A stretch of 64,000 nucleotides of DNA from Babesia bovis T2Bo (Eukaryota > Apicomplexa > Aconoidasida > Piroplasmida > Babesiidae), in NCBI RefSeq assembly GCF_000165395.2, contig NW_026261571.1, forward strand, positions 372,001-436,000, given 5' to 3'. This document shows positions 31,017-52,252 of this stretch, in pieces (position 1 is the stretch's first letter; each line of letters begins with the position of its first letter). Made by a program: the position numbers and the translations under genes. The notes under the pieces were generated by a model that worked only from the letters and a program-made list of their open reading frames with translations, made no database searches and was not told the origin of the DNA.

Positions 31017-31067
31017 TGAGTAGTACTTAGTAGTAGTGAATTAGTTATGAAATCATGGGATTCCATG

Positions 31068-32085: not shown

Positions 32086-32387
32086 ATGTTCTTGTGGAAC
32101 TGTGGAGGAGGCTTAGGAAACCTGGGTTTTTCCAGCAATCCTGTAGTTGTGGATAAACGGTATTATTTTATAGTACTACCTAGTATTGCTTTGTACTACC
32201 ATGGAATAATTGACGCTATTATATGGAAGGTTGCTACTGGGATCCTGACATTCTACCACGTAATAGTGTGGTAGTATCCGGTACTACCCTAGTACAACCA
32301 TAGCGATCCCATTCCTATTCCAGATAACTTTATCATCCCTACTGTTGAGTACTAATGACGACCTCTCAAAGCTCTTGGACCCCTTAC

Positions 32388-32551
32388 TCCTTCCTTACAG
32401 ATCCTCCCATCAACCTGAAGTAGGCCATTGACTGGGTCCTGAGGGTAACTGGTAAGGATGGTAAAGAGAAGAAGGGTATCTTGTAGAAGTCAATAGTACT
32501 AGGTAGTTCTGTAGTAGTACTGACTCACTCTTCTATAGAATGCGTATCCGG
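32388..32551 (+). pseudogene. ves1 N-terminal fragment with a nonsense codon
   Basis: Plus-strand TPSLTDPPINLK, then TAG in place of GAG, then AIDWVLRVTGKDG matches ves1alpha exon 1. It continues through a shortened intron to the first bases of exon 2 (CTATAGAATGCGTATCC), after which homology ends. It lies opposite the ves1beta fragment at 31436-32085, so the two look like a decayed divergent pair. Confidence 0.75.
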
Positions 32552-32931
32552 ATTTCCTCAACGAAATATTTAGCTATGTAAAAATAAACCTGAAAAGTTA
32601 AAAATTGAATCGATAATTATAAACGACGGTAATTTTATGTTTGCATGAGAATCAACTAGCTACCAAGTGAAATAATTAAATAACGCCAAAATAAATGGTA
32701 AATGTTACGTCGCTGGAGTTTTTAAGAGATACTTGTGCATATATTGTAAATAATGGCAAGACTGGTCACTTGATCAACGCACATAAAGGTGCATCGAACA
32801 ATATGGAAACAACGTCACCAACCTCCGCACCACTGGGCTGCTAGCGAACGCACATGAGTATTTTTCAATCCACGCCATTTACTCATCATATAGTTGCTTA
32901 TAATATTCACATTTAATATTACCATTCTAAA
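32552..32931. other. Non-coding, 380 bp
   Basis: A+T-rich sequence between the ves relic and the secreted acidic protein. Likely promoter of the latter. Confidence 0.3.
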
Positions 32932-33747
32932 ATGAATGTCGCCGTTGCCGTGGCACTCTTGGCATACACCCAAGTCAAATCAATCGTTGCCCAAATGGCA
33001 ACAAAGGTTGATTATGAAGGCGTCATACCAACAACAGAAGAGCGTGTTAAATTGGTAATGAGTCTGATGGATTCTGATGGTAACTTGGATGAGGATTTGG
33101 TAGACCTCATCAGGGAAAAATACAGGAAGCATTGTGTGGAAATGTTCAAAACTGCTAGCAGTGATACCGAAGAAGAAGGAGACAAAGTCAACAGTATCTA
33201 TCGTAGCCGCGTAGATATCAACAACATGTGCTCCATCGATAGTGACCTCTTCATCGGTTACCTGAATGTAGTTGGTTACGCCTTGGACGAGCTGTTCACT
33301 GGTCTATACGGGGAGAACTACCACAAATTGGTAGAAGGGTACCTTGAAGCTGGTATTAGGGAGAGTGGCTTGGAACCAAAAGAGTTCAAATTCCTTAACA
33401 CTAGATTCGTATTCCCAGTCTTCTACGATGATATCAGGGAACTGTACAGTGCTTTGGAACCCGAAGGTCCAGAGTCAAGTTCGTCTGAAGATGAAAAGGA
33501 GCCTTTAGACATTATGTATAAGTGGGTTGACATTCAAACTAACGGCCTAGTGCCTGCTGAACACATTGATGAACAGAAGGTATCAAATGCTCTTGCTGTT
33601 CTGTTTTCCGCTGATAAGACACCATTCAGTCAAATAGTTGTACACATTTTAGTGTACAACTTGTTCTCCGAAGATACTGAAAAGGCACGTGAGGAAGTAA
33701 TACGCTGCTCCAGGTTGTTAAACGAGGCATCGTGTGAAACGATCTAG
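32932..33747 (+). CDS. Secreted acidic protein, lineage-specific, function unknown
   Basis: Single exon, 271 residues. The first 20 residues (MNVAVAVALLAYTQVKSIVA) look like a signal peptide. The mature part is acidic, mostly helical, with three cysteines and a Ser/Glu-rich stretch (EGPESSSSEDEKEP near 180). There is no membrane segment or GPI signal. It sits within the ves island, which suggests an exported or surface-associated parasite protein; the B. bovis smORF and spherical body protein families are candidates, but no signature was matched. Alternative: an unrelated secreted protein of the locus. Confidence 0.7.
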   Translation: MNVAVAVALLAYTQVKSIVAQMATKVDYEGVIPTTEERVKLVMSLMDSDGNLDEDLVDLIREKYRKHCVEMFKTASSDTEEEGDKVNSIYRSRVDINNMCSIDSDLFIGYLNVVGYALDELFTGLYGENYHKLVEGYLEAGIRESGLEPKEFKFLNTRFVFPVFYDDIRELYSALEPEGPESSSSEDEKEPLDIMYKWVDIQTNGLVPAEHIDEQKVSNALAVLFSADKTPFSQIVVHILVYNLFSEDTEKAREEVIRCSRLLNEASCETI

Positions 33748-35608
33748 AAGACACCGCAGTTATACATTTGAATGTGGCGTATGATTAAAGTTAAATGAGA
33801 AGCTACAATGGTTGATCGCTAAAATATATGATGAAAAGTTCATTCAAGGGTCCACCAATGTAGCTTGCTGCCTATTGATAAAAAAGAATTATTAATGGGA
33901 GAAATAGGATCTACGTCATTTATTGTGTAACATGCTACTTAATGTTTAATTTCTAAAACTTTAAAACAATAGGATTGTTACCTAGAAATGGAAGTAGTAT
34001 ATAATATTCATATCGCTTGTGTTCCGCTGTGTAAATGGCTTGTATCAACATTATAATCATATCATCACCGTATTCCCAGGTTACTTACTTTGCTATAAGG
34101 TTGCATTATACAAAAAATGCATAAATAACAAATCTTTATATATCTATATGAGTGATACATATATTTCAAAAAAGTACTACAAACCGCATGGCTAATATCT
34201 TGGACCCTTGTTTTAACTCAACAATAGCTAACTATGTTGATTTTATGGTGATGATAATAATCTACGTACGATAAATCATTGGGGCGCACATATCCACATG
34301 GAATAACGTATTTTGCATTAATACGGCAAAATTCTGTATTGTGTTATATTCCATAAACCTATATGAATAACCAGAAAATGTATCCCATAACACTATATTT
34401 AGTCAAAAAGTCTACCATGTCATTATCTATGGAATAATATATATATATATATATAACGTACAATTCATTGTCAGAAGTGTCGTTTTGAAATATTCAAAAC
34501 AACAAATAAGCATGTATTTCACACAAATCGACGTCTTGAAGATAGATAATAGAAACATAGCAATAAGCTCAACATGTGGAAATTTTAACAATCAAATCTT
34601 GCGAGTGGGTCCCAGATTGGTGCCCAGTTGTCCCGGACAACCGTTGGCTAGTCCACCTATAGTAAAACGAATTGCTTTTGATAGATATACATGGCTTCAC
34701 CATCAATAATACATGAAAATAAACAACCACTGACCTATATTCGGAATTAATATAGTCATCTATGTTAAATGGTGATGCTATGAAACAGCTACCTATTTTA
34801 CCATGCCAAAAAATTTTCAATCAACCTAGTGAACAGTCATTCGTGAGAAACTTCTATGTTGTACTGATGACGTACGCATAGGCAAAAAATTACAAAGTGG
34901 AACAATAACGCAGTATCAGCTGTAAGGGGACTTTTGCGGTATGTGTAAATCTATAGATCATTATGATGGCATTTCACAAAATGCATTTTACAATAGAGTG
35001 GCATAATTCCATTGGATTATATGGATCTATACATGTTGATAGCACGATTTTACGCCATATGTATTGCTTGAGCAAAGAGAAATAGGGTATTCACACCGCG
35101 ATACCCTTCAAAGTAGGTTCGTCATTTATCCGCTTAGTGCTTCATAATAGTGTTGAATTTGAATATTTGAATACTATGGAAGCATTAATATATGTAATGT
35201 AAAGATCCTACGTGAAATGCTTCTGTGGATCCTAAAACAGTGATGCCTGCAGTGGATATCAAACGGAATGATAAGTGATTATATATGGCGTTCCTTCATT
35301 TAATATGAAATCTATCTGCTAAGTTATAATCTTCAATTTTAAATTACGTTCGCTTAAGCACCAGTTATCAGTCGGGTAACATGTTGTGATTCCACGTGCT
35401 ATAGTCCTTCCTAATGTTGCATCATCTTCTGCTGGAACATGTGAAGATATATTTATGTGAGAAACAATGACGGTACATGCATATCTTCACTAACCTTCTT
35501 CATCGGTCTACCGGGGGACTGGTGTCGGATCTAATCAACAGCTCATTGATGCACACTGTGCTTCTATGACATTAGTCACTATTCACTTCCCATTGTTCTT
35601 TCTACAGG
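33748..35608. other. A+T-rich non-coding block, 1.86 kb
   Basis: No open frame with a credible product. It includes a (TA)n run at about 34436-34456. It is the longest gene-free stretch in the window apart from the ves arrays. A splice-acceptor-like polypyrimidine tract (TTCTTTCTACAG) just precedes the small membrane protein start, so an upstream non-coding exon is possible. Confidence 0.35.
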
Positions 35609-35989
35609 ATGACGATACAAAAGGGCTCTTTTTCATGGTTAGAAGAAATAAATATTTCCCGTCCGACTATTGTAGGTGGACTAGGACTTGCATGTACTAT
35701 ACTCTTAAGCCATGCTACAACTGTGGTACTAGGCAAAAAGGCCAGTAAACACTTGAGAGACAAAGAAAAGAGGAAACGTAGGCGACGAAAAAGTCGCTTC
35801 ACCCGAAAGAAGATAGTTGATCTAGTTTCGATTATGGTGGCTGTTGTAGTTGTGATAACATTCGCAGTTGGATTGATTTTTAAATACTGCCCAAATGAAA
35901 AGGTTGATGGCATTAATATATATTGTGCTTTTATCCTATATGTCATTCTTATCGTCGTTGTATTCGCATGGCTTCTTATAAATAGATAG
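35609..35989 (+). CDS. Small basic three-pass membrane protein, unknown
   Basis: 126 residues from ATG 35609. Hydrophobic segments at about 19-42, 76-95 and 102-123, with a strongly basic loop KEKRKRRRRKSRFTRKK between the first two. The start sits directly after TTCTTTCTACAGG, so the reading frame could begin in an upstream exon. No family was recognised. Its place between ves fragments suggests an island-specific gene. Confidence 0.5.
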   Translation: MTIQKGSFSWLEEINISRPTIVGGLGLACTILLSHATTVVLGKKASKHLRDKEKRKRRRRKSRFTRKKIVDLVSIMVAVVVVITFAVGLIFKYCPNEKVDGINIYCAFILYVILIVVVFAWLLINR

Positions 35990-36209
35990 CACTCTAAAGG
36001 CGAAACAATCTTGCCGAATGCTGGCGAAATTGTCTATATATTTCTCGGAGATAATATTTGGGATTTATTAGCAATTATGTCTGACTGTCACATACACTTG
36101 ACAACATCATTCATTATAATATATGGGATTATATCATATGACCTGTTTCCATTTATTCTTACAGTGGCAGTGAATATCATGTAAACTGCCTGATGGACAT
36201 CTTCATCAG

Positions 36210-37343
36210 ATGGATGATGAAGAAGAGTTGAATGATGCAAATAGCGTAAAGGTTCTGCTGGTCTCTATAGGAAACGTAGTGATACAATTGGGTAATGCCC
36301 AGCAGGTATTGGAAAGGGATGTTAATAATGAGGGTGTGGCAGTAGCGGCACTAAAGAAAGTACTTGAGGTGAGTGCTAACCATGGGAGCAATCTACAGGA
36401 TGTATTAGAGAAGGTACGAGAGGTAGTGGAAGAGAAGGTGACGGAACTAAAGAAGGGGGCACCATTGCATGGATTAACAGAGGTTGTGAAGGAACTAGGT
36501 ACAACTAAAAAGACACTGGAGAGTAGTAGTAATAAAGACAAGCTTGATGCTGCCCACCATGGAATAGATCAGACATTGGAGATATTTAAGAAGTGGTTGA
36601 AGAATACATCAACAAGTCTTGACGGTAACAAAGATGATATTGCCAATGCTATTAACGACCTCACCTCCCTATGCAACTCTCCCAAGTGCACGGCATGTAA
36701 AGACCACAAAGATAAGTGTGGCAAGCAATCCAATCCCACTATCTGTAGGACCTGTCTCCAACCCACTACCACCGGTGTCCCCTTCCCCCTCCAGGCATTC
36801 CTCGAGGACCGGTTACCAGGCTTTAGTTGTAATGAGGTTCTCAACACAGAGGACACCGACAAGTACCCTCCCGCTGCATCCCACTTATATCACAGCAATA
36901 GTCCCGGCCAGTGCTGTCCACTTCCAATGGGTTTTAGAGGGCAATTCCACAAGGGCAGCAGCAGTGACATGACTGGCCAACGCCTTTATGGGATCCTATA
37001 CTTCTTCAGTAACGAGAACATGATGCAGTCGTGTGTCTATACACTAGTGAGGGTCACAGCAGCTCTCAGTGCCACAACACCACAGGTATTGGGTGATGTA
37101 TTCGGGTTCTTTAGGGGTGGAGTGGGAAACAAAGAGCAGGGAAAGAACAAGAAGGATAGAGATGCGACGTGTAAGCACGATAAGGATCCGTCTCAGAAAG
37201 GAGATGATGACTACTTTTGCGGCTGGTGTGCCTCTGGATTACGGGATGAAGTACAAAAGATAGGGTGGATACCAAAGGGGGATGACAGTAATGGAGGGAA
37301 GTACATGGTCACTGGTAGTGATTGTAGTGGCACAGATCGTTAA
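36210..37343 (+). pseudogene. ves1alpha middle-domain fragment
   Basis: An open frame of 377 residues aligns with the middle of VESA1alpha. It starts in the coiled-coil region (GNVVIQLGNAQQVLE), then CKDHKDKCGKQSNPTICRTC, LQAFLEDRLPGFSC, SNENMMQSCVYTLVRVTAAL, TPQVLGDVFGFFRGGVGN and FCGWCASGLRDEVQKIGWIP. Homology stops abruptly after GGKYM, followed by unrelated codons and a stop. The leading residues (MDDEEELNDAN) are not ves-like. There is no N-terminal exon and no membrane exon. It could serve as a gene-conversion donor. Confidence 0.82.
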
Positions 37344-37371
37344 ATTATATTTGAATGAGACCCCATCTTAC

Positions 37372-37442
37372 TCACTACCTCTGGCGATACCGAGGTCATA
37401 AAGGCACTGATAGACCAGTTGGCACAGGGATTGCAGAAGCTA
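37372..37442 (+). pseudogene. ves1beta-type exon-2 scrap
   Basis: TSGDTEVIKALIDQLAQGLQK in one frame matches the ves1beta sequence TEVIKALIDQLALGLQKW and nothing around it does. It is only 30 bp after the end of the ves1alpha fragment, so alpha-middle and beta-early segments are fused here. Confidence 0.7.
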
Positions 37443-38526
37443 TGTAATGCCATTAAATATAGAAACTGAAGCAATGAATGCCACTATATTAGCAAAAATT
37501 ATGCAAATATTGATCGTCACTCTACTAGCAAGAATTTTGCAATCAAACATTGAAAATCAATAGCGCAGAAAACTGTACTAAATGTCAAAAAACGACATTA
37601 TCTAGAAACTAGATGAAACAATAATATAATTGTATTTATATATATTAATAATACAATTAGTATACCAGTTATGAGAGGACACCGCTATATTCCCCTATCT
37701 AGCGCCACACCTACTGTTCAAGCCACTATCCAGAACCCCACCACTACACTACCCCCATACTCTATAAACCCCACCAGGGTAACCCCAACATAAATTATGC
37801 CCCCACTAAACACATCTTTGTGCGGGGACAGTATATATAGTACTGTGTAGACTAGTGAACGTGTTATTCCATGTAAATACTGTGTATACCTGTAATAGGA
37901 TAGTCTAGATGAATCCGAAATAACCACAAGCTGCTAACACTGTATAATCACTATATACTTACTAAGTGGTCACCAAAATGGTACTACTACTCCATATAAC
38001 TACCCCGAACCCCTAGAACCTTTTCACGAAAAGTACCATCAAACTTTAATGAAACTTTTACCAAAACCAGTAGTAAACTTTTACTGAATATAGGACGAAT
38101 ATTTTAGTAAAATAACTACGGAAGCTTTACCAACATTGCTATTACAATGCTATCAATCCTTTGCAAACCTTTACGCCAAATTTCCAGCAAATGTCCACCA
38201 AAAAATGGCAGCAACTTTATCCGTATCACCACCCTGAATGTTTAGAACTTTTCTACCAAACTTTCACCAAAAGTGCAACCAAACTTTTGTGAAACTTTTA
38301 CCAAAATCCGCACTAAACTTTGACTGAAAATACTACTAAATTTTTAATAGAATCACTACTAAACCTTTACTAACATTGCTACGTAACTCTATGAAAACAC
38401 TCTGTAACCTTATCCACATCACCATCCCTAACTGCTACTACTTTTATACTAAACTTCCATGTAACCTTTGATGAACATATCCACATTATCCCTAGTTATC
38501 GCGCCGAAGGCGCCACTACTTTGCCA
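37443..38526. repeat. Non-coding 3' flank of ves1beta with degenerate AAACTTTTACCAAAA-type repeats
   Basis: No coding region. From about 38020 to 38470, loosely periodic words such as AAACTTTTACCAAAA and ACTTTTACTGAATAT occur many times. They are the reverse complement of the words in 47700-50640 and in the last ves1beta intron (38874-38997). Near 38500 a GCGCCGAAGGCGCC hairpin lies 20 bp beyond the stop of ves1beta. Confidence 0.6.
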
Positions 38527-41500
38527 CTATGTCTTACCAAAAAACTCCAGTATCCCCCTTCCCTTCTTCTTTCCCACCATCAAGATCTCCCATGGACTCA
38601 GACTACCCTTCCTGAACCATCCCCTACAATGTGACCTCATATGTGTCCAGTCCAGTGGCCATATGGCACCAAAGGCAAGGTAGAGTACCGCTACTAGCCA
38701 GGCTAGCGTGAGGACAAAGATCCAGGGGAGCCTGGTGGTGTAGATGAGCTGGTTGATTTCATGGTGGAGTCCTGTATTAGAGTCTTTCTTGAGGTGTTCA
38801 CCCTTGAGGACACTCTCTAGTGTTCCCAGGAAGTTGTGACACTTCTTATGTGTACCTACATCACCATTTAATACCCCTAGGACACTGTTGCGCCTTAGGC
38901 GCCCTTATAGAACTTTCAGCAAAAGTGCTACTAAATTGTTGTGAAACTTTTACCAAAACTACTGCTACACTATCCATACTACTATACTACAACCTACCCT
39001 TGGTGCTGTGCAACTCCGTTACATTACCATACCCAAAGCCATACTTGTACAACACCGGCAGTACCCCGGTACATGATACGACAGAGGTACACTGACAGAC
39101 TCCGTTACTACCACCACCACTGCATGGCATACCGTGACTTCCTGCTTTACACGACTCTCCACATCCAACAGCTCCTGCCTTACCTACTACATCATTAATC
39201 CATATGATACGGTTGCGCGCCGTACTAAAGGATATTGTTGCGCCGAAGGCGCCCCTATCTCTACGGCGCGCCCCTATATAGCACTGAAACTTACCCGTAC
39301 ATCCATCACCCTTACAATCCACCTTCATATAATCATCCTTCAACCCCTCTAGTCCTGTCCTGAACCCCTCTATCAAATAGACCAACCATGACAGGTAGGT
39401 CCCAGCCATCAAGGGACTCAACTGGCCATACTGCTGGCCACTCAGAGGAGAGAGGTATTTGGCGCCAGTACCAGTAGTGCAGTCTACTAGACACTTAAGG
39501 GTGTCGTTCGTGGTACTGCAATCTCCACCATTTTTCCACTTCTCGAGTGCTTTGACCACTCCATCAGGACCACCACCCAGCATGCTCAACCTAACGTCCC
39601 TTAGTTCCTTTTCTAGCTTCATATACACTCCCTGTTGTCCACCACCACCACTACTGTTTCCCCCAATGTAGACTATATAGTAATAGAACCCAAAGAGGTC
39701 ACCCAGAGTCCGTGGCACCGTGGGAGTGATACATGCCAGTAGTCTCAGTAGTACCACTAGGGTGCCATGGCACTTCTCTGGGTCACAGTAGTACTCCAGG
39801 AGTAGTGACAGTGTCCTGCCAGTGCAGTGGGCAGGATACTTGTTGTTAGTGCCTACTACAGGATGAGTCCATATATGACTAGGGTGGGACGTACCTTGTG
39901 CCGGTGGTGACAGATTCTCTGTCTTATGGGTACCCTGGGTTAAATCTGTATACACCATGAGTCACTATTGGTCACTAGGGTTACTGTGGCGCCCAGGGGG
40001 TGCCCCTGGTATATAAACAGTGCCTTAGGGGTACCATATAGTACTGGGACGTACCTTTGAAGTGAGTCTCACCGGTAGTGTTCCTCCCATCAGTGCTCCA
40101 TCCCATTGGGACGGGACAGTGTCCTTGTGGCATTTTCAAATGACCCGGAGGGAAATCATACTTGGTATTCATGTGATCCTCGATAGATGGATATTCATCT
40201 ATGTTGCCCCTTCCTACTGTCCGTGGACAAGCAATATTACCAAGTCCATCACATAAGAAGCACATAAGAGGAGAATGCTTTTGACCACCAGCACCACTCT
40301 GTAATCCACACTTCTTGGTATGGTCATCGCCACTAGCACCTGCTACACCATTACTCCACATGACTACCCTATACACTACCTACCTTCCGCTTTACATAAC
40401 CAAGAATATGAATTACTTGCTCCACTCCCCCAATAGACTCCATTACCATACCTACAACTCTGCCAGCCCAGCACAGCCTTCTTGTCTCCTGCCACTCCCA
40501 CCGTGCATTGCTTCCTCAGGAAATAGAGCTGGTAGAAGCAGTGGTAGACATATACCCTCAGTTGGTCCAGGCACTGGGCGGCCGAAAGGTCCATCTGGAA
40601 GCCAAAGAGCCCATTGGCGTACATCCCATGGAGGGGGCCTAAAGGGAGTGTTAGACAGTGACTAGTAGTGACGAGTACTTACCAAACTGGGAGACATCCA
40701 GGTGGTACCCGCCGTAGCAGACTTGGCCTTCCGTGAGTTCATTGGCAACCGCCTGTTGCTGTTGCTGTTGTTGCTGCTGCAGCTGTACCTGGGCAGCTTT
40801 TGCCTTGGCTGCTTCTTCTTTCTTTTTCTTTATCTCCTCAAGGGTACACCTCTTAGATTTAGGGTCTTTACTGTGTTCGGGACACCTGTTCTTCTCCGCA
40901 GCAGCTGGAGCACTACCTACTCCACCATAAGTCCACATGACTACCCCTAGGGCACTGTTGCGCCCATGGCGCCCTTATAACAGTGTCTATATCACTCACC
41001 TGGTGCTTGTGCCGGCTGCGGCTGCGCCTTGTCTACCTCTTTTTCTATGGTCCCCTGGATACCGATGAGTACCAATGGGCAGTAGCCACAGGCGGCCAGT
41101 AGGTAGTGGGTAATACAGTCCCTCTTGAGAGTGGTACTGGCATTAGATTCACCGTGGAGCTTTAATTCACCCTTCTTTTGCTCATCCTCAGGGAATTTTC
41201 CTCCCATCCTATCTACCAAGTCCTTGTACCCCTGACTATAGGGCAATGCACTTAGCCAGTATAGGATTTCCCGGATAGTGCGTGGTTTCCTAGGAGAAGG
41301 AGTGTCCTTGTTAGTAGTATCCTTGGCAGTACTACTTCCTGCCTTCGGGGTGATACCCTTAGCCCCGGCACTACCTGCCCTGAAGTACCCACTGGCAAGG
41401 ATGTGGAGTACCAATAGGGGGTACTTAGTACAGATGTCTTCAGTACTGCCTTTGGCAGCACCCAGTGCTCCACTATAAATACTGCTGTAGTACTCAGCTA

Positions 41501-42613
41501 CACTCTCTGGGTCACATTGGTACTACAGAGGAGGTGGGACTTACCCTTAGAAGTACTGTCTCCCTGGAATTCTTTCCACGGTACTCCCTTACTCTTATCC
41601 GTCAACAAGTCGTGCACAAACTCTCCATTCTTATTACCTACTCCACCATAAGTCCACATGACCACCCTAGGCAGCACTCACCTGGTACAGTACCACTCCC
41701 ATTCAACCTCTCCAGGTCGTAGCCCATGGCCGCCATGAATGAGCCGAGACCCTTATTGTCACCAGCCTCTAATGAGTGCAAACTACTGTTCTCCCATCTA
41801 CTACTCCCCTTTCCCGTTAGGAACCCCAACTGACTGAGTCCACTCCAGATGAGACATACTGACCCTAGGAAAATACGGGCCAGGAGGTGGACCTTAGTGG
41901 AGTCACTGGATATGGAGGTCCAAAGGAAGTGTTCTGTAGTGCCACTACTGGAAGAACTCTTTGTTTTGCAATAGGCCGAGAGGTAGCATTTTTTAGAAGC
42001 ACTAGTGGTACCACACTGGCTACACTGATGACAAGGAGTACTACTAGTACCACTACCGGTACAACAGGTACCACCACCACCATTAGGACAATCACACTTC
42101 TTTCCTATCCCATTCTCCCCCTTAAGACAACACTCATCTCCTTTTTCCTGCCACCCAACCCACTTCTGTAGTCCCAGTGCCAACTGGTCTATCAGTGCCT
42201 TTATGACCTCGGTACCACCAGCACAAGTACTACTGGCAGCACCAGTGCTGTCACTATAGACCAGTCCCAGATCAGTGAGCACTGGCTTGACTATGGCACT
42301 TTCCTCTTGTAGGAGTATGCCGTCCCAGTACCTCTTAGGGCTGGGACCAGGGGACCCCGGGGACCTGGCATCATACAGTAGGTCCTTCGTTGCCTTGGCC
42401 AAGTAGCACAGGCAGTCTGTATAGCAATGTGGGAGCTAGTATTAGTGATATTGACTTACGGGGAGGATTATCTGTGCTTGGCGGCTTCTTTGCCACATTT
42501 TGTTTACCATCCCTACCAGTAACCCTCAGGACCCAGTCAATGGCCTCCTTCAGGTTGGTGGGAGCCTGGGTGAGGCTGTCATAAGGCCAGGGAGAAGCCG
42601 CTGCTGCCGCCAT
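38527..42613 (-). CDS. ves1beta: Variant erythrocyte surface antigen-1 beta subunit (VESA1beta)
   Basis: About 11 exons read leftwards. Exon 1 (42613-42460) is MAAAAASPWPYDSLTQAPTN with NLKEAIDWVLRVTGRDG. Exon 2 (about 42416-41682) has the cysteine-rich variable region (CDCPNGGGGTCC; CHQCSQCG) and VHLLARIFLGSVCLIWSGLS. Short exon about 41638-41547; then about 41517-41001 (RTIREILYWLSALPYSQGYK; CGYCPLVLIGIQG), 40919-40681 with a polyglutamine run of about nine, 40640-40386, 40361-40055, 39940-39895, and 39862-39284; the final membrane exon (about 38873-38527) has RLPWIFVLTLAWLVAVLYLA and ends ILEFFGKT. The protein forms, with VESA1alpha, the heterodimer exposed on infected erythrocytes that mediates antigenic variation and cytoadhesion. 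Introns carry GCGCC/GGCGC hairpins. No stop interrupts the exons, so the gene looks intact; the exact minor exons are approximate. Confidence 0.85.
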
Positions 42614-42958
42614 TGTTTACCACCTCTTGGTGAGAGAGTGTCCGGTGAGAGTCAGTGGTAGTCAAGGTCAATGTATCGGGGTGGAATCCTAGGGAGATAG
42701 GGGCGCCTTGGGCGCAACACGTTCCTAGGGGATTCCACGTAACGCTAGGTTGTTCGCTATAACAACGGTATCATCATCACCATGGTACTACGTAGTGGAA
42801 TCCCATAGAATAGTGCGCGCGCCACTGTAACGGTTACTGTCGCGCCGAAGGCGCCCCTTCTACACGGGCGCGCTCAGTATATATAGGATTCCACCCCGAT
42901 AGCCACTCCACTGCCTCACCACTGTGAGTACTGCTGAGTACTCCTAAAGGCACTGACA
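42614..42958. promoter_or_regulatory. Bidirectional ves1 promoter, 345 bp, quasi-palindromic
   Basis: Separates the start codons of ves1beta (minus) and ves1alpha (plus). A perfect 17-bp inverted repeat is present: ATCGGGGTGGAATCCTA at 42675-42691 and its complement at 42884-42900. Between them are hairpins GGCGCCTTGGGCGC (42701-42714) and GCGCCGAAGGCGCC (about 42842-42855) and the palindrome GTAACGGTTAC. A TATATATA-like tract (about 42878-42885) lies on the alpha side. The divergent arrangement resembles the B. bovis locus of active ves transcription, where the intergenic region of about 430 bp acts as the promoter for both. Confidence 0.75.
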
Positions 42959-45900
42959 ATGGCCCCTGCAAGCACTTTCACGCCGAAGGCGTCCCTGACA
43001 GACGCCCCTACCAACCTGAAGGAGGCCATTGACTGGGTCCTGAGGGTAACTGGTAAGGATGGTAAAGACAATGGAGGTACGTTACTGTAGACATTACTGT
43101 GTTATGCGCGCCCGTGGAGATAGTACCTGACACTGTCCTTTACACTGGCGCGCCCAGTACTATTGGACTCACCCCTCTACAGAATGCATATGTGGCCTGG
43201 CGGCGGCAGTGACTGACCTACTGCAGTCAGTAGAGCTAGAATACAATGGTAAGTACCCTAGAGTACTAGAGTAGTACTACCTAGTACTACTACTGGTATA
43301 CAGTACCTCATGGTGTCCTATAGGTTATCAAGGTGATGTTAAGGATGGCACTGACACCAGCAAAGGTGCCACTGAACAGCAAGTCAAAGGCCACCTCAAT
43401 GGACTATTCTCTCTGGTACAGGGACTAGGTGGCACTGCAGTGGTCCGGACCTATATAGACCAGCTGGCACAGGTACTCAGTGCACTCGTTGGGTGGAGTA
43501 AGATAGATAAGTGTTGGGAGGGCAAGAATGGCAAGTGCACGAAGGGTGGTAAGGTACATCATGGCCAAAATGGCTCGTGCAAGTATCTACTGGATGTAAA
43601 GCCGAATATGCCGTGCACAGAATGTAAATGTATGAAATGGAAACAGCCCGATCCGATCAATGAAGGAGTTCAACTGGGCAGAAGATGTACAAGGTGTAAG
43701 GATAGTGGTAGTAGTAGTGATTGTAAGTGTAGTACTGGTGGCTGTGCTGCTGGCCAGGAGTGTAAATGCGCTAAAGAAGGCAAGTGCTGCAAGTGTTGTT
43801 GTAAGGATAAGTGTGGGACGTGTAGTGATAAGTGTAGTTGTGTCAAGGAGAAGGACATCTATGGCCTCGGTTTATATGGACATAATGACAGCTATACTTC
43901 GGCATATCCAAATAACACACACAACCCACCAACATGGAAAGATCTGAAGGAAAGTGCTACCAAACGCCACCACTGTGCCCGTATTTTCCTAGGGTCAGTA
44001 TGTCTCATCTGGAGCGGCATTACCTATATGTATTGGACTGGTAAATGGCACGGTACTAGTCCCCGGTGGAACAATCACATCCTGGACGGCAGAGGTCTAG
44101 ATGATGGAAGTTTATCCCAATGGCTACAGGCCCTAGGGTTCCCTAGGGAAATGCTGAATGACGCTGGTCCTGGTAATAGGTTGGATGCTATTATATGGGA
44201 TGGGTTAAGGGATAAGTTATATTTGGGATTCCTGGAGCCTAGTGGCCTTAATACTAGTGATGTCAAGGACGAAAATGGCAATACAGCGAGAAGTCCTTTC
44301 GGTATGAATTACGCTGGATTTATACATACTGCACATAGGGATTCATTCAATAGTGATGCTACTGTCTTCCCTAATGGTACTAGCTCTAGTAGCGCTGGCC
44401 AAATCAGTGACACTAACACCAACAAATGTGGTGCCTTGTACAAGCTCTACATTCTATCGTGTGCCTATTTTACTGGGCTTCAGCAGAAGGCTCCGCCGAA
44501 GGCGGACAATAAAACTCCCCGTACCATCCGTGAGATCCTATACTGGCTAAGTGCTCTGCCCTATAGTCAGGCCTATAAGGATATGCTGGACTATGCCAAG
44601 AAAAGACTAAAAGAAGTGCTCAAGAAACCCGGAGACAATGACTCTACCAATGGAGAGACACAACTCAAGTTCTATCAAACAGGTCTTAAACATCCCATTA
44701 CCGTTGATGAATACAACCTGTTTGCCCACTTCCAGGCAGTGACTCAGTACTGCCCACTGGTGCTCATAGGTATCCAAGGTGGAATACACAGTCCTAAAGG
44801 TACTACTACTGGCATTCACTCCCTCTATGCCAACACTGAGTGTGGATTTACCTATCCCACTGTGTCCATCCAAGCATACAACCAAGTGGTACACTACATT
44901 AGGGCTCTGTTCTACCAACTCTATTTCCTCAGGAAGCAGTGTGCCATGAAAGTGGCTCTAGGAGGCAAATGGCGTGAATGTAGGTATGGCAATGGAGTGC
45001 TTGGGAAGGACGTGGTTAGCTGGATGTGCCTGGGGTGTGACCCCATGGAACATGATAGGAAATGTAGGGTAAAGGAGATGGGGAAGGGGTTGGATGGGGT
45101 GAAAAATGTGGATGCAGGAGCTGTATCAAGGGTCATCAAAGATTTGTTAGTGCCTTTGGGAAATGTAGTGGTACAATTGGGTAATGCCCAGGAGGCATTG
45201 GAAGGGAAGAAGAAGGAGGCGATAGAGGGGGTGAAGACGGTACTAGGGAAGGCTAAGGGGGAACTAGATAAGGCTAAGCAGGAACTAGAGCAGGTGAATG
45301 GGAAGGACGGTCAGACGTCACAGGCAATAAGTAAGGCTAAGAAGGCACTAGAGGCGCTGACGAATGGTGGTAGTGGTGCACTACATACACTAGTGAGTGA
45401 TGGACTAGAGAAGGCAGCAAATGGGGAAGAGTGGAAGAAGGATTACAGTAGTGCCAAGGACAAGATAAGTGCTGCTATCAAAGCAGTACGTGATGCATTG
45501 GAGGGATTACTGCTATTAAAGGATGCAGGAGCCTCAGGGCTAAAGGAAAATAAAGAAACACTGTTAGGAGCCATTAAAGATATGCTAGACATGGTAAGCA
45601 GTACTAGATGTGTCCACTGTAAAGATCACAAAGACAAGTGTGGCAAAACACCAAAACCCACTATCTGTAAGACCTGCCATCAACAATACAACGAAGGCTT
45701 TCCCTCCCCTCTCCAGGCATTCCTCGAGGATAGGCTACCAGGTTTTAGTTGTCGTAGTACCATGGACGAGCTGGACAAACAGGAGGTAGAGAAGGCTCAG
45801 AATAAAGGAAAAGATACATCTCATGCGTCGGCGCTAGAATATCCCTCTGCAGCATCCCACTTAGGACACTGTAATGGCTCTGGCCAATGCTGCCCACTGC

Positions 45901-47087
45901 CAATGGGTTTTAGAAATAACTTCCAGGACGGTGTCACCAATACTGGCCAACGCCTTTATGGCATGCTGTACTTCTTCAGTAACGAGAACATGATGCAGTC
46001 TTGTGTTTATACACTGGTGAGAGTTACTGCAGCACTCAGTGCCACGACACCGCAGGTATTGGGTGATGTATTCGGGTTCTTCAGGGGTGGTGTAGGAAAT
46101 CCAGTGAAGAAAGAGGGAGACTTAAGCAAGAACTGTGATCACCAGAATGACCCCAAAACGTCGACAGGCAATGACAAGTACTTTTGTGGCTGGTGTGCCT
46201 CTGGGTTAAGGGATGAGGTAAAGAAGATAGAGTGGATACCAAAGGGGTCGGACGCAGGAGGTCAATACATGGACAAAGTCGGTAAAGCACTAAGAGATAT
46301 TAAGGGCAGTGACAGCACTGCTACTACCACTGCATATTCCAGCACTGCTACTGCCAATACCTCCCTCTCACGACTCACTAAGAACTGCCAGTACCTCTCC
46401 CCCCTAACCGGTGAACTCTATACAGCAGTGAGTGCCACCTTCGGTAACACATACCTCTCATGGGTGCTATACCTATCAGATTCCCTATACTGGGGATTAC
46501 AGTCACTGTCTGACGCATTCCAACAGATTGAATGCCGTGGTTGTACAGGATGTGACCCCAATAAGTGCAAGAAGGGAGAACACGGAAGCAATGGCGGTGG
46601 ACAGTGTGGATGCCAATCAATCGTATCGTGTACCGGGGTATTGCCGGTATTGTATAGGCATGGCTTCAGCTACGGTAACCCATTCAATCTGGAGGGGTAT
46701 GAACAGAAGGATGAGAAAAGTGGAGATTATAGCATAGAGAACACGAAGAATCCTAGGCAGTGTCACGAGTTCTTAAGCAGTCTTGGTGCAGTGATCAAGA
46801 AGAAGGAAGCCACTCAGAAGGATCAGGAACAGCACCCCCTCACCAACCTCCTCTCCGAGGTCGGCAAGCTCCAATACGACATACGGCTCCCGTGGATATT
46901 TGTGCTGACCTTGGCCTGGCTGGTAGCAGTACTCTACCTCGCCTTTGGCGCCATATGGCCACTGGACTGGACACATATGAGGTCTCATTGGTTACGGGGT
47001 GGAGAACACCAGTGGCAATGTATGTGGTATAAGGTGATGACGGGACGCAAAGGAATGGAACTGGTGGAGTATTTTGGTAAGACATAG
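42959..47087 (+). CDS. ves1alpha: Variant erythrocyte surface antigen-1 alpha subunit (VESA1alpha)
   Basis: Three exons with exact frame closure: 42959-43076, 43183-43248 and 43324-47087, giving 1,315 residues. Exon 1 is the ves N-terminus (SLTDAPTNLKEAIDWVLRVT). The long exon contains a cysteine-rich variable region at about residues 119-240 (CKCAKEGKCCKCCCKDKCG), ARIFLGSVCLIWSGITYM, RTIREILYWLSALPYSQAYK, and a coiled-coil block (about 645-790). Then come CKDHKDKCGKTPKPTICKTC, LQAFLEDRLPGFSC, SNENMMQSCVYTLVRVTAAL, and near the C-terminus a single membrane segment (WIFVLTLAWLVAVLYLAFGA) with a short tail ending VEYFGKT. There is no N-terminal signal peptide. With VESA1beta it forms the surface ligand. 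Two introns are the usual number for ves1alpha. No frame damage was seen. Confidence 0.9.
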
Positions 47088-47848
47088 TGGCGCCTTCGGC
47101 GCAACGGTGCTAAATGATATACACTAGTGTCACTCACTATATATAGTAGCGGTATAGGTAGTGTTCTTATAGTGGGCATTAAAAGCCTACACATTTCAGT
47201 GAAACCAGTCCGTTGAGCAGTGCTAATATAGAGTAACTGAGATATCTATGGAAGGCTGGAGTTAGTCCACTGAGCAGGTAGTGATAACCCTTCCGTGGTA
47301 CCACACACATTCAAATTTACCCAGTGGGTTCCATGAAGTGGCAGTGACTGCAATAGGCAACGGTATGTATGACGTACACACAGTACATTGTCTATGCCAT
47401 TGGGGGTCATCATATGGCGCCAGGGGCGCAACGGTGCCTCTAGGGGTGGTGATGTGGAGTAATTGTAACATAGAAAGCCCATGGGTTCCACCCACCCTTT
47501 GGCACCAATTGAAAGGAAACAGTACATTATAGACAAGTGTAGTAACGATTGATAGGAAACAGTGTTATTATAGACATGTGTAGTAACAATTGAAGGAAAC
47601 AGTGTTATTGTAGACACGTGTAGCAACAATAGAAAGAAACAGTGTTATTATAGTTATGGGTCTCCAGGACGGTGTAACGGAAATGTTGTTATACTGTTGG
47701 TATAGCTTTAGTCAGATTGTTTATACGTTTTAGTTGTGTTTCCACTGAAACTTGGGCTTAGCTTTGGGTAATTCTTTCACAAAAGTTTTCTAGAGCTTTT
47801 GTAGCACTTTTGCCGAAAGTTTAGTATAAAAGTAGTGCCTTTTCGGGG
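47088..47848 (+). repeat. ves1 3' flank, tandem copy 1
   Basis: Begins directly after the ves1alpha stop with TGGCGCCTTCGGCGCAACGG. Nearly identical, base for base, to 48174-48933 (offset 1,086). It includes repeats of the word GGAAACAGTGTTATTATAGAC (about 47515-47650) and ends in TTAGTATAAAAGTAGTGCC and CTTTTCGGGG. No gene is inferred; antisense open frames in it are identical in both copies and derive from the duplication. Confidence 0.85.
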
Positions 47849-47865
47849 TAATTATGGTGACGTAG

Positions 47866-48173
47866 GTCCGAAGAAGTGCCACGAGTTCCTAAAGACACTG
47901 GGTAACGTAGAAAAAAGCGTCGAGTTCACAAAACTCACCAATTCCATCAAGCAGCTCATCTACACCACCAGGCTCCCCTGGATCTTTGTCCTCACGTTAG
48001 CGTGGCTAGTGGCGGTACTCTACCTTGCCTTTGGTGCCATATGGCCATTGGACTGGACACATATGAGGTCACACTGGTTACGGGGTGGAGAACACCAGTG
48101 GCAATGTATGTGGTATAAGGTGATGACGGGGCGCAAAGGAATGGAACTGGTGGAGTATTTTGGTAGAAAATAG
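47866..48173 (+). pseudogene. Isolated ves1 last exon, copy 1
   Basis: An acceptor-like GACGTAG is followed by AAGTGCCACGAGTTCCTAAAG in the arrangement of the last ves1beta exon. It encodes the membrane segment (RLPWIFVLTLAWLVAVLYLA), WLRGGEHQWQCMWYKVMTGR and VEYFGRK. The frame is intact but has no start codon or upstream exons. The 5' portion (with its intron acceptor) is beta-like; the tail with GGEHQWQC is alpha-like, so it is mosaic. Confidence 0.75.
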
Positions 48174-48933
48174 TGGCGCCTTCGGCGCAACGGTGCTAAA
48201 TGATATACACTAGTGTCACTCACTATATATAGTAGCGGTATAGGTAGTGTTCTTATAGTGGGCATTAAAAGCCTACACATTTCAGTGAAACCAGTCCGTT
48301 GAGCAGTGCTAATATAGAGTAACTGAGATATCTATGGAAGGCTGGAGTTAGTCCACTGAGCAGGTAGTGATAACCCTTCCGTGGTACCACACACATTCAA
48401 ATTTACCCAGTGGGTTCCATGAAGTGGCAGTGACTGCAATAGGCAACGGTATGTATGACGTACACACAGTACATTGTCTATGCCATTGGGGGTCATCATA
48501 TGGCGCCAGGGGCGCAACGGTGCCTCTAGGGGTGGTGATGTGGAGTAATTGTAACATAGAAAGCCCATGGGTTCCACCCACCCTTTGGCACCAATTGAAA
48601 GGAAACAGTACATTATAGACAAGTGTAGTAACGATTGATAGGAAACAGTGTTATTATAGACATGTGTAGTAACAATTGAAGGAAACAGTGTTATTGTAGA
48701 CACGTGTAGCAACAATAGAAAGAAACAGTGTTATTATAGTTATGGGTCTCCAGGACGGTGTAACGGAAATGTTGTTATACTGTTGGTATAGCTTTAGTCA
48801 GATTGTTTATACGTTTTAGTTGTGTTTCCACTGAAACTTGGGCTTAGCTTTGGGTAATTCTTTCACAAAAGTTTTCTAGAGCTTTTGTAGCACTTTTGCC
48901 GAAAGTTTAGTATAAAAGTAGTGCCTTTTCGGG
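48174..48933 (+). repeat. ves1 3' flank, tandem copy 2
   Basis: Second copy of 47088-47847. Each copy follows a VEYFG-stop, showing that exon plus flank was duplicated as a unit. Confidence 0.85.
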
Positions 48934-49821
48934 GTATTATATGGAGTATTGGTGTAGTAGATCAGGCGGTGAATAAGCCATGGGTTCCACCCAGCCTTTG
49001 GCACCAATTGAAGGAAACAGTACATTGTAGACAAGTGTAACAACAATTGAAGGAAACAGTGTTGTTATAGTTAAGGGTCTCCAGGAGGGTGTAACGCAAA
49101 TGTTGTTATGCTGTTGGTATAGCTTTAGTCAGATTGTTTATACGTTTTAGTTGTGATTCCACTGAAACTTTGGCTTAGCTTTGGGTAATTCTTTCACAAA
49201 AGTTTTGTAGAGCTTTTGTCATATGCCTTAGGTGGTGTTAGTATAGCTTTAGTCAGGTAGTTCATACGTTTTAGTTGTATTTCCACTGAAACTGTGCTTA
49301 GCTTTGGGTAATACTTTCATAAAAGTTTTCTAGAGCTTTAGTCATGTGCCTTACATGGCGTTAGCATAGCTTTAGTCAGGTAGTTTATACGTTTTAATTG
49401 TGATTCCACTGAATCTTTGGCTCAGCTTTGGGTAATTCTTTCATAAAAGTTTTCTAGAGCTTTTGTAGCACTTTTGCCGAAAGATTAGTATAAAAGTAGT
49501 GCCTTTTCGGGGTATTATATGGAGTATTGGTGTAGTATACCAGGCGGTGAATGAGCCATGGGTTCCACCCAGCCTTTGGCACCAATTGAAAGGAACAGTG
49601 TTATTATAGTCATAGGTCTCCAGGACGGTGTAACGCAAATGTTGTTATGCTGTTAGTATAGCTTCAGTCAGGTAGTTTAGAAGTTTTAGTTGTGATTCCA
49701 CTGAAACTGTGGCTTAGCTTTGGGTAATTCTTTCACAAAAGTTTTCTAGAGCTTTTGTAGCACTTTTGCCGAAAGTTTAGTATAAAAGTAGTGCCTTTTC
49801 GGGGTAATTATGGTGACGTAG
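48934..49821 (+). repeat. Partial tandem repeats of the ves1 3' flank
   Basis: Further shortened copies of the segment with TTTTAGTTGTGATTCCACTG, GGCTTAGCTTTGGGTAATTC and AAAAGTTTTCTAGAGC occur near 49145, 49270, 49395 and 49685. Units are of uneven length, suggesting repeated unequal exchange. No gene is seen. Confidence 0.7.
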
Positions 49822-50128
49822 GTCCGAAGAAGTGCCACGAGTTCCTAAAGACACTGGGTAACGTAGAAAAAGCGTCGAGTTCACAAAACTCACCAATTCC
49901 ATCAAGCAGCTCATCTACACCACCAGGCTCCCCTGGATCTTTGTCCTCACGTTAGCGTGGCTAGTGGCGGTACTCTACCTTGCCTTTGGTGCCATATGGC
50001 CATTGGACTGGACACATATGAGGTCACACTGGTTACGGGGTGGAGAACACCAGTGGCAATGTATGTGGTATAAGGTGATGACGGGGCGCAAAGGAATGGA
50101 ACTGGTGGAGTATTTTGGTAGAAAATAG
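49822..50128 (+). pseudogene. Isolated ves1 last exon, copy 2, frameshifted
   Basis: Near-identical to 47866-48173, but one A is missing in the GTAGAAAAA run (about 49866), which shifts the frame upstream of the membrane segment. It retains the sequence for the membrane segment and ends with the same stop and GGCGCCTTCGGCGC. Confidence 0.75.
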
Positions 50129-50707
50129 TGGCGCCTTCGGCGCAACGGTGCTATAATGTGGTAGTTAATATCTAGGGATGAGTAATGTGGAGCAGTATAG
50201 TGGTAGAGTTAGAGGACCAATGATACTCATAAGGTATACATAGAGTTATAGTGGCAGTGTTAGTAAAGGTTTAGTACTGGTTTTATTAAAATTTTGGGTC
50301 GTACGTTCAGTACAAGCTTAGTAGGATTTAGGTAGAGGTTTGGCATTAGATGTGATAAATGATTCACAGAACTTTAGTGGCACTTTTGGTAAAGGGTTCA
50401 CGAGAAAGTAGTAGCACTTTTGCTGAAAGTTTAGTATAACTTTGGCAAATGTTTCACAAAAGTTTAGTAATAGTTTTGGTGAATGTTTGGTATAACTTTG
50501 GTAAAAGTTTCACAGAAGTTTAGTAGCACTTTTGCTGAATGTTTAGTATAACTTTGCTAAAAGTTTCACAAAAGTTTAGTAATAGTTTTGTTGAATGTTT
50601 CACAGAAAAGTAGTAGCTGTTGGGGGTGGTATATGGAAGAGATTACAGAGTGTGTTGCTTGGATTTTCGTAGCAATGTTGGTAAAGGACTCATAGAGTTT
50701 TGGTGCA
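50129..50707 (+). repeat. Degenerate TTTGGTAAAAGTTTCACA repeats
   Basis: From about 50265 to 50630, words like GTTTAGTAGCACTTTTGCTG and TTTGGTAAAAGTTTCACA recur at intervals of about 60-75 bp. The same words are in the last intron of ves1beta (on minus, 38874-38997), so this looks like an expanded intron. It leads into the next last-exon copy. Confidence 0.65.
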
Positions 50708-50986
50708 GTGATCAACGGAGATAGTACCACTCCCCTCACCAATCTCCTTACCCAGGTCGGCAAGCTCCAATACGACATACGGCTCCCCTGGATCTTTGTT
50801 CTCACGCTAGCGTGGCTAGTAGCGGTGCTCTACCTTGCATTTGGTGCCATATGGCCACTGGACTGGACATATATTAAGTCACATTGGTTACGGGGTGGAG
50901 CACACCAGTGGCAATGTATGTGGTATAAGGTGATGACGGGACGAAAAGGAATGGAACTGGTGGAGTATTTTGGTAGAAGAGTTTAG
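50708..50986 (+). pseudogene. Isolated ves1 last exon, copy 3
   Basis: After TTTTGGTGCAG the frame reads VINGDSTTPLTNLLTQVGKL, then the membrane segment, WLRGGAHQWQCMWYKVMTGR and VEYFGRRV. The first part resembles the ves1alpha sequence just before the membrane (PLTNLLSEVGKLQYD), unlike copies 1 and 2. No start or upstream exons. Confidence 0.72.
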
Positions 50987-51380
50987 AGACAGTGTTATAG
51001 TTTGAGTGCAATATGGATATCATGTTACAATGATATATGATGAGCTCATTGTTACTAACGTACGATTAGTACTAAAAACAGAGCCCAAATTTTCTATGAC
51101 AGGCTGTCATTTTTAATGGCGCCTTCAAAAGAAGGTTTTTACGTTATTATAAGAATAAAGGTGGTAGATACACAGTTATCACGCTTATATCTAGGCTGAA
51201 AATTGGACAACGCCCTTTTGGGGCATCACTATTACAACAATACGACCGTGACCATATAGAATTATTATGTTACTCGACATTCTACAGGATCATAATTGAT
51301 TCCTTCACACCATACTACCTTCGCCAATAGCATACATTCATTCATTGGTTGATAAAAAATCGACTATGGTGATACACTCG
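50987..51380. other. Non-coding, 394 bp, end of the ves1 array
   Basis: Homology to ves sequences ends around 51000. No gene, hairpin or repeat was recognised beyond a GGCGCC at about 51118. Confidence 0.35.
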
Positions 51381-52252
51381 TTAAGTTGCTGTATCCTTCG
51401 GAATATTTGATATGGTTGTCCTAGGGCAAATTATATCATAAAATTCTTGGAGAGCCTGATCTACATATAATGCAAATGTTGTATCCATATCATCATGGCC
51501 AGCACCATTTATCCATCTGCCATATACGCGTTGCATTGTTAGAGCCATACTTTGCGATATTGATATTGGAACGACATTATCCTTTGTACCGTGAAGAATT
51601 AATGTTGGTACATTAATTCTATCTACTTTATCTTCATTTCTAAACATGTCACCTGGTATTGTGCACGGAAGTCGATATACTTTTACTTTATATACGGAAG
51701 AAATGGGACTTTGCAGTACAACTCCTAGGACACTACGTTTCAATGCTATGTGGACAGTGGGACCACTGCCTATGCTCCTACCATATGCTACTATAGTATG
51801 AGGATTAACACCTATTATATATAAACATTCTACATCTAATATCCCACCAAGTACAGAAGTGAGATAATCATACGCTGCTTCTACATCCATATATACATTA
51901 TGTTCAGAAGGTACACCCTCGCTTAGACCATATCCTGTACGTTATGCATAATAATTGTATAGCTCACCAGAGTAATCATACAAAAATACATTTGCATTCC
52001 ATTTTGCAATGCGGTTCATGAGACTGCAAGCCACATCACCAATGTCTTCTGCATTACCATGGCTATACAATATTGTAAAGCGTGCCGTACTATAAACAGT
52101 TAAAATATCGCCCCGTTAACCTACCGATGCTTCACATAATACGCGGCAATCTTGTGCCCAGCTTTTGTTGGGAACATATGTAGATGCGGATCATCAAAAC
52201 TATAGCTAGGCATCGGAGGGTGAAATACTACCGTATTAAGTATGTTGCCCAT
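51381..52252 (-). CDS. ABHD17/BEM46-like alpha/beta hydrolase (serine hydrolase)
   Basis: Three exons on minus: 52252 to about 52127, about 52093-51964, and about 51930-51381. Exon 1 starts MGNILNTVVFHPPMPSYSFD, with a glycine at position 2 that could be N-myristoylated, then AGHKIAAYYVKHR. Exon 2 carries ILYSHGNAEDIGDVA, the oxyanion-side HGN motif. Exon 3 carries VAYGRSIGSGPTVHIAL (nucleophile Ser in GRSIG), LILHGTKDNVVPISIS (Asp) and the His in GAGHDDM. This is the ABHD17 pattern of the family, whose mammalian members remove palmitate from membrane proteins. Substrates here are unknown. The gene separates the ves array from the mL13 repeat. Confidence 0.8.

What the first reader, a model, noticed from the sequence alone, without database searches (positions are those of the whole stretch)
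38527..47087. Intact head-to-head ves1beta/ves1alpha pair with a quasi-palindromic shared promoter
Both genes appear open throughout and share a 345-bp gap containing a perfect 17-bp inverted repeat 42675-42691/42884-42900, GC hairpins and an 11-bp palindrome. In B. bovis such divergent pairs include the single locus of active ves transcription. The symmetric element abutting each start suggests that one regulator or one nucleosome-free region controls both genes.
Basis: partly seen in the sequence, partly recalled or inferred. Interest (0 to 1): 0.82.

Follow-up and report, generated by a model that had tools for sequence, protein, structure and literature searches.

The report
Twin-cassette promoter between Babesia antigen genes
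Two back-to-back surface-antigen genes of a cattle blood parasite share a known kind of two-way control region, and it turns out to be built from two mirror-image DNA cassettes whose GC-rich core also recurs in introns and at the ends of this gene family.

Summary
A ves1β gene (38527-42613, minus) and a ves1α gene (42959-47087, plus), evidently of Babesia bovis, stand head to head across 345 bp. The inverted repeat is 18 bp, perfect, 42674-42691/42884-42901. [quoted passage not shown] I found 33 pairs with such a region.

Added here: the region is not one palindrome but two mirror-image cassettes, each GGAATCC box, GC-rich nested palindrome, GGATTCC box (R-F-R-F in 22 of 33). Outer boxes sit 67-88 nt from the β start (33 of 33) and 56-72 nt from the α start (31 of 33). 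Leaders between box and start differ by class, so the symmetric element does not abut the starts.

The GC hairpin GCGCCNNNGGCGC occurs 309 times in the genome, 0 for a control. The first 100 listed all lie within 3.8 kb of ves sequence: promoters, introns, and just after stop codons. Four promoterless head-to-head α/α pairs carry it at their joints. A role as shared regulatory or recombination tag is plausible, unproven. Whether this pair is the active locus cannot be told from sequence.

The parts
38527..42613 (-). ves1β gene (10-exon model: 42613-42460, 42416-41682, 41637-41545, 41506-41000, 40946-40683, 40638-40417, 40375-40055, 39945-39295, 39186-38998, 38876-38527)
   Evidence: VESA1_N (PF12785) in two pieces; C-terminal match 38530-38760; exon model only, no transcripts
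42959..47087 (+). ves1α gene; exons 42959-43076, 43183-43248, 43324-47087
   Evidence: VESA1_N E 5e-203; ORF 43275-47087; splice sites read by eye
42614..42958 (.). 345-bp intergenic region, inferred bidirectional promoter
   Evidence: homologous to 32 other ves intergenic regions
42614..42673 (-). β-type leader between start codon and outer box
42674..42691 (.). outer β-side box R1 (TATCGGGGTGGAATCCTA)
   Evidence: conserved in position
42703..42715 (+). GC hairpin in the β-proximal cassette
42728..42738 (+). inner box F1 (GGGGATTCCAC), closes the β-proximal cassette
42795..42804 (-). inner box R2 (GTGGAATCCC), opens the α-proximal cassette
42817..42873 (.). GC module GCGCGCC...GGCGCGC of the α-proximal cassette, with hairpin 42842-42854
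42884..42901 (.). outer α-side box F2 (TAGGATTCCACCCCGATA)
42902..42958 (+). α-type leader
42980..42992 (.). hairpin ACGCC-GAA-GGCGT inside α exon 1 (encodes part of TPKAS)
43106..43153 (.). GC module (without the inner hairpin) inside ves1α intron 1 (43077-43182)
39215..39271 (.). GC module with hairpin 39240-39252 in a modelled ves1β intron (39187-39294)
40960..40972 (.). GC hairpin in a modelled ves1β intron (40947-40999)
38890..38902 (.). GC hairpin in the last modelled ves1β intron (38877-38997)
47090..47102 (+). GC hairpin 2 nt after the ves1α stop codon
38501..38513 (-). GC hairpin 13 nt after the ves1β stop codon

Best explanation
This is one of about 33 divergent ves pairs of B. bovis with a shared bidirectional promoter. 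Shown here: the promoter region consists of two inverted copies of one palindromic cassette (box, GC-rich nested palindrome, box), one per gene, with the outer box at a nearly fixed distance from each start codon and a class-specific leader between. Inferred: the boxes and GC arms are palindromic binding sites for one dimeric factor, each cassette fires its proximal gene, and the mirror arrangement keeps the two VESA1 subunits co-expressed. Also inferred: the GC core, which recurs in ves introns and right after ves stop codons and was seen only in ves neighbourhoods among the 100 copies listed, marks ves genes for the same factor or for recombination. In an unexpressed pair the promoter would be silenced by chromatin; whether this pair is expressed is unknown.
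For: 33 divergent pairs among 40 fetched loci, matching the published 'approximately 33 pairs' (passage). Box order (hexamers GGAATC and GATTCC) R-F-R-F in 22 of 33, other orders in 11. Outer box 67-88 nt from the β start in 33 of 33 and 56-72 nt from the α start in 31 of 33; leaders (31 α, 33 β) 87% identical α-α, 80% β-β, 61% α-β, 50% α shuffled against β. β-side and α-side cassettes align end to end: 25 long cassettes (of 43 distinct); 8 of 9 box pairs, 4 of 7 GC-arm pairs and 3 of 5 hairpin pairs never vary. GGATTCCACC: 124 places in the genome against 13 for the backwards control; of the first 100 listed, 80 lie in the 33 regions. The window's two box-to-box cassettes fold as DNA better than shuffles, z -2.95 (2 of 200 as good) and -4.55 (0 of 200). 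Function of several ves promoters is published (passages).
Against: In the cassette alignment no pair changes on both sides, so folding is not shown; the GC module alone (42815-42875) does not fold better than its shuffles (z -1.17, 29 of 200 as good). The window's own region is among the least palindromic of the 33, and its own two leaders are 68% alike, more than the α-β mean. Two pairs have only one cassette (L027, L036) and two lack a perfect outer α box (L025, L033), so the full layout is not obligatory if those pairs work. The hairpin is missing in 4 of 33 regions. Recent gene conversion could by itself keep boxes identical. No transcript, factor or chromatin data were available.
Confidence: 0.72

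Rival explanations
1. The symmetry is only a relic: an ancient inverted duplication of a whole ves 5′ end, kept alike by gene conversion, with no binding function for the symmetric parts.
For: The inverted similarity continues into both first exons (80 nt, 88%); L010 and L011 have identical regions; in L034 a gene with a β-type leader carries an α-type first-exon start, a sign of conversion.
Against: Leaders between box and start are class-specific (61% α-β) while boxes are nearly invariant and held at a near-constant distance; conversion alone would not single out the boxes.
Confidence: 0.2
2. The GC hairpins and modules are primarily recombination sites for gene conversion, inversion and cassette exchange; their presence in the promoter is secondary.
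For: The same element sits in introns and at 3′ ends. Four promoterless head-to-head α/α arrangements (L084-L087) have no boxes; similarity to the window's α gene begins inside intron 1 on one side and inside intron 2 on the other, and a GC hairpin lies at the intron 1 joint in 4 of 4. Single-cassette regions look like deletions between the two R boxes, short cassettes like deletions between GCGCC repeats (by eye). Copies of the ves1α 3′ end in tandem mostly carry the hairpin. G-quadruplex motifs are reported enriched near ves (passage).
Against: No mapped conversion tracts; the four joints may descend from one event; target-site duplications were not looked for; the consistent orientation in promoters (24 of 25 β-side one way, 1 unresolved; 13 of 13 α-side the other way) is not required by simple homology-driven exchange.
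Confidence: 0.35
3. The 3′ and intronic copies act in RNA: a stem-loop after the stop codon that governs ves mRNA stability or 3′ end formation.
For: 39 of 51 C-terminal coding ends on contig C1 below 912 kb have the hairpin 5-22 nt after the last matched codon, sense loop TTN in all 39; 37 of 47 distinct ends in fetched loci have it within 35 nt of the stop codon, 2 further out, 8 not.
Against: 12 of 51 and 8 of 47 ends lack it; no match to an Rfam family in 38000-52000 (one hit far below its cut-off); no covariation test on the 3′ copies alone; promoter copies have the opposite orientation to the gene.
Confidence: 0.2
4. This pair is the single active ves locus of the sequenced strain.
For: Both genes look intact and the promoter layout is the common one.
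Against: The promoter layout is shared by 22 of 33 pairs; dominant loci in the clones of one study were on chromosomes 2 and 3 (section 8).
Confidence: 0.04

Closest known systems
B. bovis bidirectional ves promoters / locus of active ves transcription (Al-Khedery and Allred 2006; Wang et al. 2012; seen only as cited)
   Same: Head-to-head ves genes with a short quasi-palindromic intergenic region (passages)
   Different: Wang et al. 2012 is not held and the 2006 paper was not looked up, so I cannot say whether they already resolve the two-cassette R-F-R-F layout or the shared GC module
P. falciparum var promoter and var intron
   Same: Control sequences in both promoter and intron of a mutually exclusive antigen family; [quoted passage not shown]
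   Different: In ves a similar palindromic module is physically present in promoter and intron; no factor or silencing role is known here
Repeats bordering antigenic-variation cassettes (Borrelia vls repeats, T. brucei 70-bp repeats; recalled, not tested)
   Same: A short repeat at the edges of variable units
   Different: Here the repeat is a GC hairpin or nested palindrome; no recombination role shown
MITEs or introner elements (recalled)
   Same: Short element with inverted ends, present in many introns
   Different: All of the first 100 hairpin copies lie within 3.8 kb of ves sequence; target-site duplications not tested

Membership tests
ves1α/ves1β divergent pair | VESA1_N domain in both genes | tested here: met
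   PF12785 in the α ORF (5e-203) and in two β pieces (1.8e-13, 1.4e-10)
[quoted passage not shown]
   Exons 118, 66 and 3764 nt, sum divisible by three (own arithmetic); feature as stated in PMC4066756 (passage)
ves1α/ves1β divergent pair | ves1β with many introns (up to 11) | tested here: met
   Model with 9 introns; a model, not transcript evidence
ves1α/ves1β divergent pair | Conserved VESA1 C-terminal tail | tested here: met
   β match to the α tail, 70% identity, window 38530-38760
ves1α/ves1β divergent pair | CKRD and VDCS domains of B. bovis VESA1 | not tested
   No model used
Quasi-palindromic bidirectional ves promoter | Self-complementary intergenic region between divergent ves genes | tested here: met
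   38 against mean 21.8, 1 of 500 shuffles as high; 18-bp perfect inverted repeat
Quasi-palindromic bidirectional ves promoter | Drives transcription in both directions | not testable with these tools
   Needs transcripts or reporters
Locus of active ves transcription | Dominant transcription of this pair | not testable with these tools
   No RNA data
MITE / introner element | Inverted ends and many copies | tested here: met
   GCGCGCC...GGCGCGC, 89 places against 0 for the control
MITE / introner element | Dispersal independent of one gene family | tested here: not met
   First 100 of 309 hairpin copies all within 3.8 kb of ves features; the other 209 not placed
MITE / introner element | Target-site duplications | not tested
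   Not examined

The most novel reading that the evidence does not exclude
The GC palindrome is a ves-private tag: one factor binds the same module in the promoter, in intron 1 and at the 3′ end of each ves gene and loops or silences the gene as a unit, as promoter and intron do for var genes. The outward-pointing copies at promoter and stop codon also delimit the unit that is moved or converted.
Probability: 0.22. Interest if true: 0.82.

Novelty: new variant of a known kind. Interest (0 to 1): 0.52.

Why it matters
How B. bovis restricts expression to one ves locus, and what focuses gene conversion on ves genes, are open: a review calls control of monoallelic ves expression 'less well understood' (passage), and another paper says that analogous recombination motifs 'may exist in Babesia' (passage). 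A palindromic module present in ves promoters, introns and 3′ ends gives a concrete sequence to test for both questions.

Tried and rejected
Rejected: one global palindrome (the structure is two cassettes, and the leaders are class-specific). Not accepted as shown: a hairpin selected as structure. In the cassettes no pair changes on both sides. A wider look at 213 distinct GCCNNNGGC contexts finds the next two pairs Watson-Crick in 155 and 157 (113.5 and 88.7 expected from column make-up) but the third in only 46 (65.1 expected); much of the excess may be one inherited form in α exon 1. Rejected: taking L034 (a/a by first exon) and L039 (b/b) as exceptions by leader; each has one α-type and one β-type leader (read; L034 was turned round). 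By gene body, however, L036 and L038 have ves1α-strength VESA1_N matches on both sides, so those two are α/α pairs, a kind already in print.

Led nowhere: Rfam; smORF repeat search, no convincing match in the window. Paper searches for hairpins, inverted repeats or truncated C-terminal copies in ves listed nothing recognisable on this element; they saw listings only, and three key papers looked up are not held, so absence from print is not claimed. Two tallies were wrong at first: promoter hairpins sorted by their own loop were recounted by position and flank; 13 'intergenic' hairpins are 10 truly between the starts and 3 in first exon or intron. A notebook line gives 36 of 47 ends; the count is 37.

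Limits: genome searches score only the best candidates, so family counts are lower bounds; hairpin and box listings show the first places only (100 of 309, 100 of 124). The α intron 1 count used a fixed stretch where no acceptor was found (20 of 33). The 33 pairs are those found through the intergenic sequence; one search shows more head-to-head ves1α matches without it. Single or lone first exons: of 8 checked, 3 β ones keep the outer box (one with a mismatch), 1 α one has its best matches over the last 52-55 nt only, 4 gave no match.
Full report
Identity. The window lies at C4:372001-436000 of an 8.23-Mb genome in 8 contigs. Contig lengths (1.25, 1.73, 2.59, 1.80 and 0.83 Mb), VESA1_N domains and ves exon structure point to Babesia bovis, most likely the T2Bo reference, whose chromosome 4 is in two contigs (figure legend); organism and strain are inferences. 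ORFs matching actin, WD40, kinase, IMPDH and M24 peptidase families lie on one side and Sec23/24 on the other.

The pair. The minus gene starts at 42613 and ends at 38527; the plus gene starts at 42959 and ends at 47087; the gap is 345 bp. Both carry VESA1_N. The α gene reads as three exons of 118, 66 and 3764 nt, the published ves1α form (passage). The β gene has a 9-intron, stop-free model; its five stretches that match the α protein have no stops. Transcripts are needed to confirm the splice sites.

What is in print. A passage in PMC7485966 describes about 33 head-to-head ves pairs, α/β or α/α, flanking quasi-palindromic, bidirectional promoters, several shown to function. Passages in PMC12064010 (section 8), PMC6630957, PMC4066756 and PMC9477259 agree on bidirectional promoters and expression of a pair from an active locus. 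Wang et al. 2012 and two other papers looked up are not held.

Survey. The 345-bp region has many relatives in the genome (84 matches, a lower bound). Of 40 fetched loci, 33 show a first exon on each strand, 3 on one strand only and 4 on none. Region lengths run 200-497 bp. By leader type each of the 33 has one α-type and one β-type side (read); by gene body two of them, L036 and L038, are α/α.

Architecture. Each region holds R (GGAATC) and F (GATTCC) boxes. The order is R-F-R-F in 22, R-F-F-R-F in 6, R-F-F-R in 2, R-F in 2 and R-F-F-F-R-F in 1. The outer R box lies 67-88 nt from the β start in 33 of 33, the outer F box 56-72 nt from the α start in 31 of 33; the other two have a changed outer box. 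Between R and F lies a GC-rich nested palindrome, in its full form outer arms GCGCGCC/GGCGCGC around a hairpin GCGCC-NNN-GGCGC; 29 of 33 regions hold at least one exact hairpin, 39 in all. The β-side cassette is homologous to the reverse complement of the α-side one: 25 long cassettes (16 β-side, 9 α-side, of 43 distinct) align end to end with boxes and arms almost invariant. In the window the two cassettes fold as DNA with z -2.95 and -4.55, though the GC module alone does not stand out (z -1.17); the reported inverted repeat pairs the outermost boxes of the two cassettes. The leaders are class-specific: 87% α-α, 80% β-β, 61% α-β, 50% shuffled; the window's own two are 68% alike. No cassette pair shows a change on both sides, so sequence recognition is better supported than folding. 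The two 200-215-bp regions look like loss of one cassette between the two R boxes.

The GC element beyond the promoter. The exact hairpin occurs 309 times in the genome and 0 times for the backwards control. The first 100 listed, all on contig C1, lie within 3.8 kb of a ves first exon or C-terminal match: 39 just after a C-terminal coding end, 10 between pair starts, 17 within 450 nt upstream of a C-terminal match, 34 elsewhere in ves neighbourhoods (as corrected). Of 51 C-terminal ends in that stretch, 39 have the hairpin 5-22 nt after the last matched codon, all with a TTN loop in sense, and 12 do not; in fetched loci 37 of 47 distinct ends have it within 35 nt of the stop codon. The larger module GCGCGCC...GGCGCGC occurs 89 times against 0. 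In ves1α intron 1, or the fixed stretch standing for it in 20 of 33, each of the 33 pairs carries a module (21), a hairpin (16) or GCGCGC (27), against 0 of 314 windows of 110 nt in exon 3; the fixed stretch is 220 nt, twice the control window. In promoters the element points away from its proximal gene: 24 of 25 β-side one way with 1 unresolved, 13 of 13 α-side the other way. With the sense orientation after the stop codon it thus faces outward at both ends of a ves gene. Many α first exons carry the compensated form ACGCC-GAA-GGCGT in coding sequence.

Joints without a promoter. One search shows head-to-head ves1α matches only about 340 nt apart. In the four looked at (L084-L087) there are no boxes. 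Similarity to the window's α gene starts inside intron 1 on one side (window 43150-43166 onward) and inside intron 2 on the other (43262-43271 onward), and an exact GC hairpin lies at the intron 1 joint in 4 of 4. This fits recombination at the intronic element; the four may share one origin.

Interpretation. The simplest reading is a bidirectional promoter made of two mirror-image operator-like cassettes, one per gene, with boxes as binding sites. The sharing of the GC core among promoter, intron and 3′ end suggests, but does not show, a family-wide tag for regulation, recombination or both. The nearest parallel is the var promoter and intron (passage). G-quadruplex enrichment near ves is already reported (passage) and may partly reflect the same GC-rich elements; I did not test this.

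What cannot be told. Activity of this pair, the bound factor, any role in conversion, and whether other Babesia share the element.

Noticed in passing
46867-47166, 47953-48252, 49908-50207, 50763-51062: Four tandem copies of the ves1α 3′ end (300 nt), at 100, 91, 79 and 72% identity. Genome-wide, of the 108 best of 150 C-terminal matches, 63 lie in open frames of 200 aa or less and 45 in frames over 1000 aa, so short tail ORFs outnumber full genes.
   Followed up: partly
L084-L087 (C1:30.5 kb, C1:532.4 kb, C2:548.5 kb, C4:893.7 kb): Promoterless head-to-head ves1α arrangements joined within introns 1 and 2, with a GC hairpin at the intron 1 joint.
   Followed up: partly
47619-48167: The first downstream partial copy aligns to the α C-terminal part with 4 stops, a decayed copy.
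   Followed up: no
46851-47084, 49880-50122, 50747-50977: The tails match Pfam PF23479 'Apicomplexa microprotein' below its cut-off (22.6-22.8 against 27 bits).
   Followed up: no
29349-37499: Second, degenerate ves area: β-type first exon at 29477 (minus), β-like piece 31429-31992 (minus), first exon with a stop at 32355 (plus), α-like 389-aa ORF at 36174-37343. The β leader's similarity to the promoters ends near its outer box.
   Followed up: partly
41638-41681, 40918-40999, 39187-39294: Some ves1β intron regions look alike at their 3′ side and differ by presence of the GC hairpin (by eye), as if copied from one another.
   Followed up: no
L010 and L011 (C1:671.8 kb and 795.7 kb): Identical 293-bp intergenic regions 124 kb apart: recent duplication or conversion.
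   Followed up: no
L036 (C3:1682.7 kb): The first exon on the β-leader side continues with the same residues as its partner (KKLGDGGT), and both bodies are ves1α: conversion within a pair is likely.
   Followed up: no
G000:C3:543846-544079: Another ves1α C-terminal tail identical over 78 aa to the window's.
   Followed up: no
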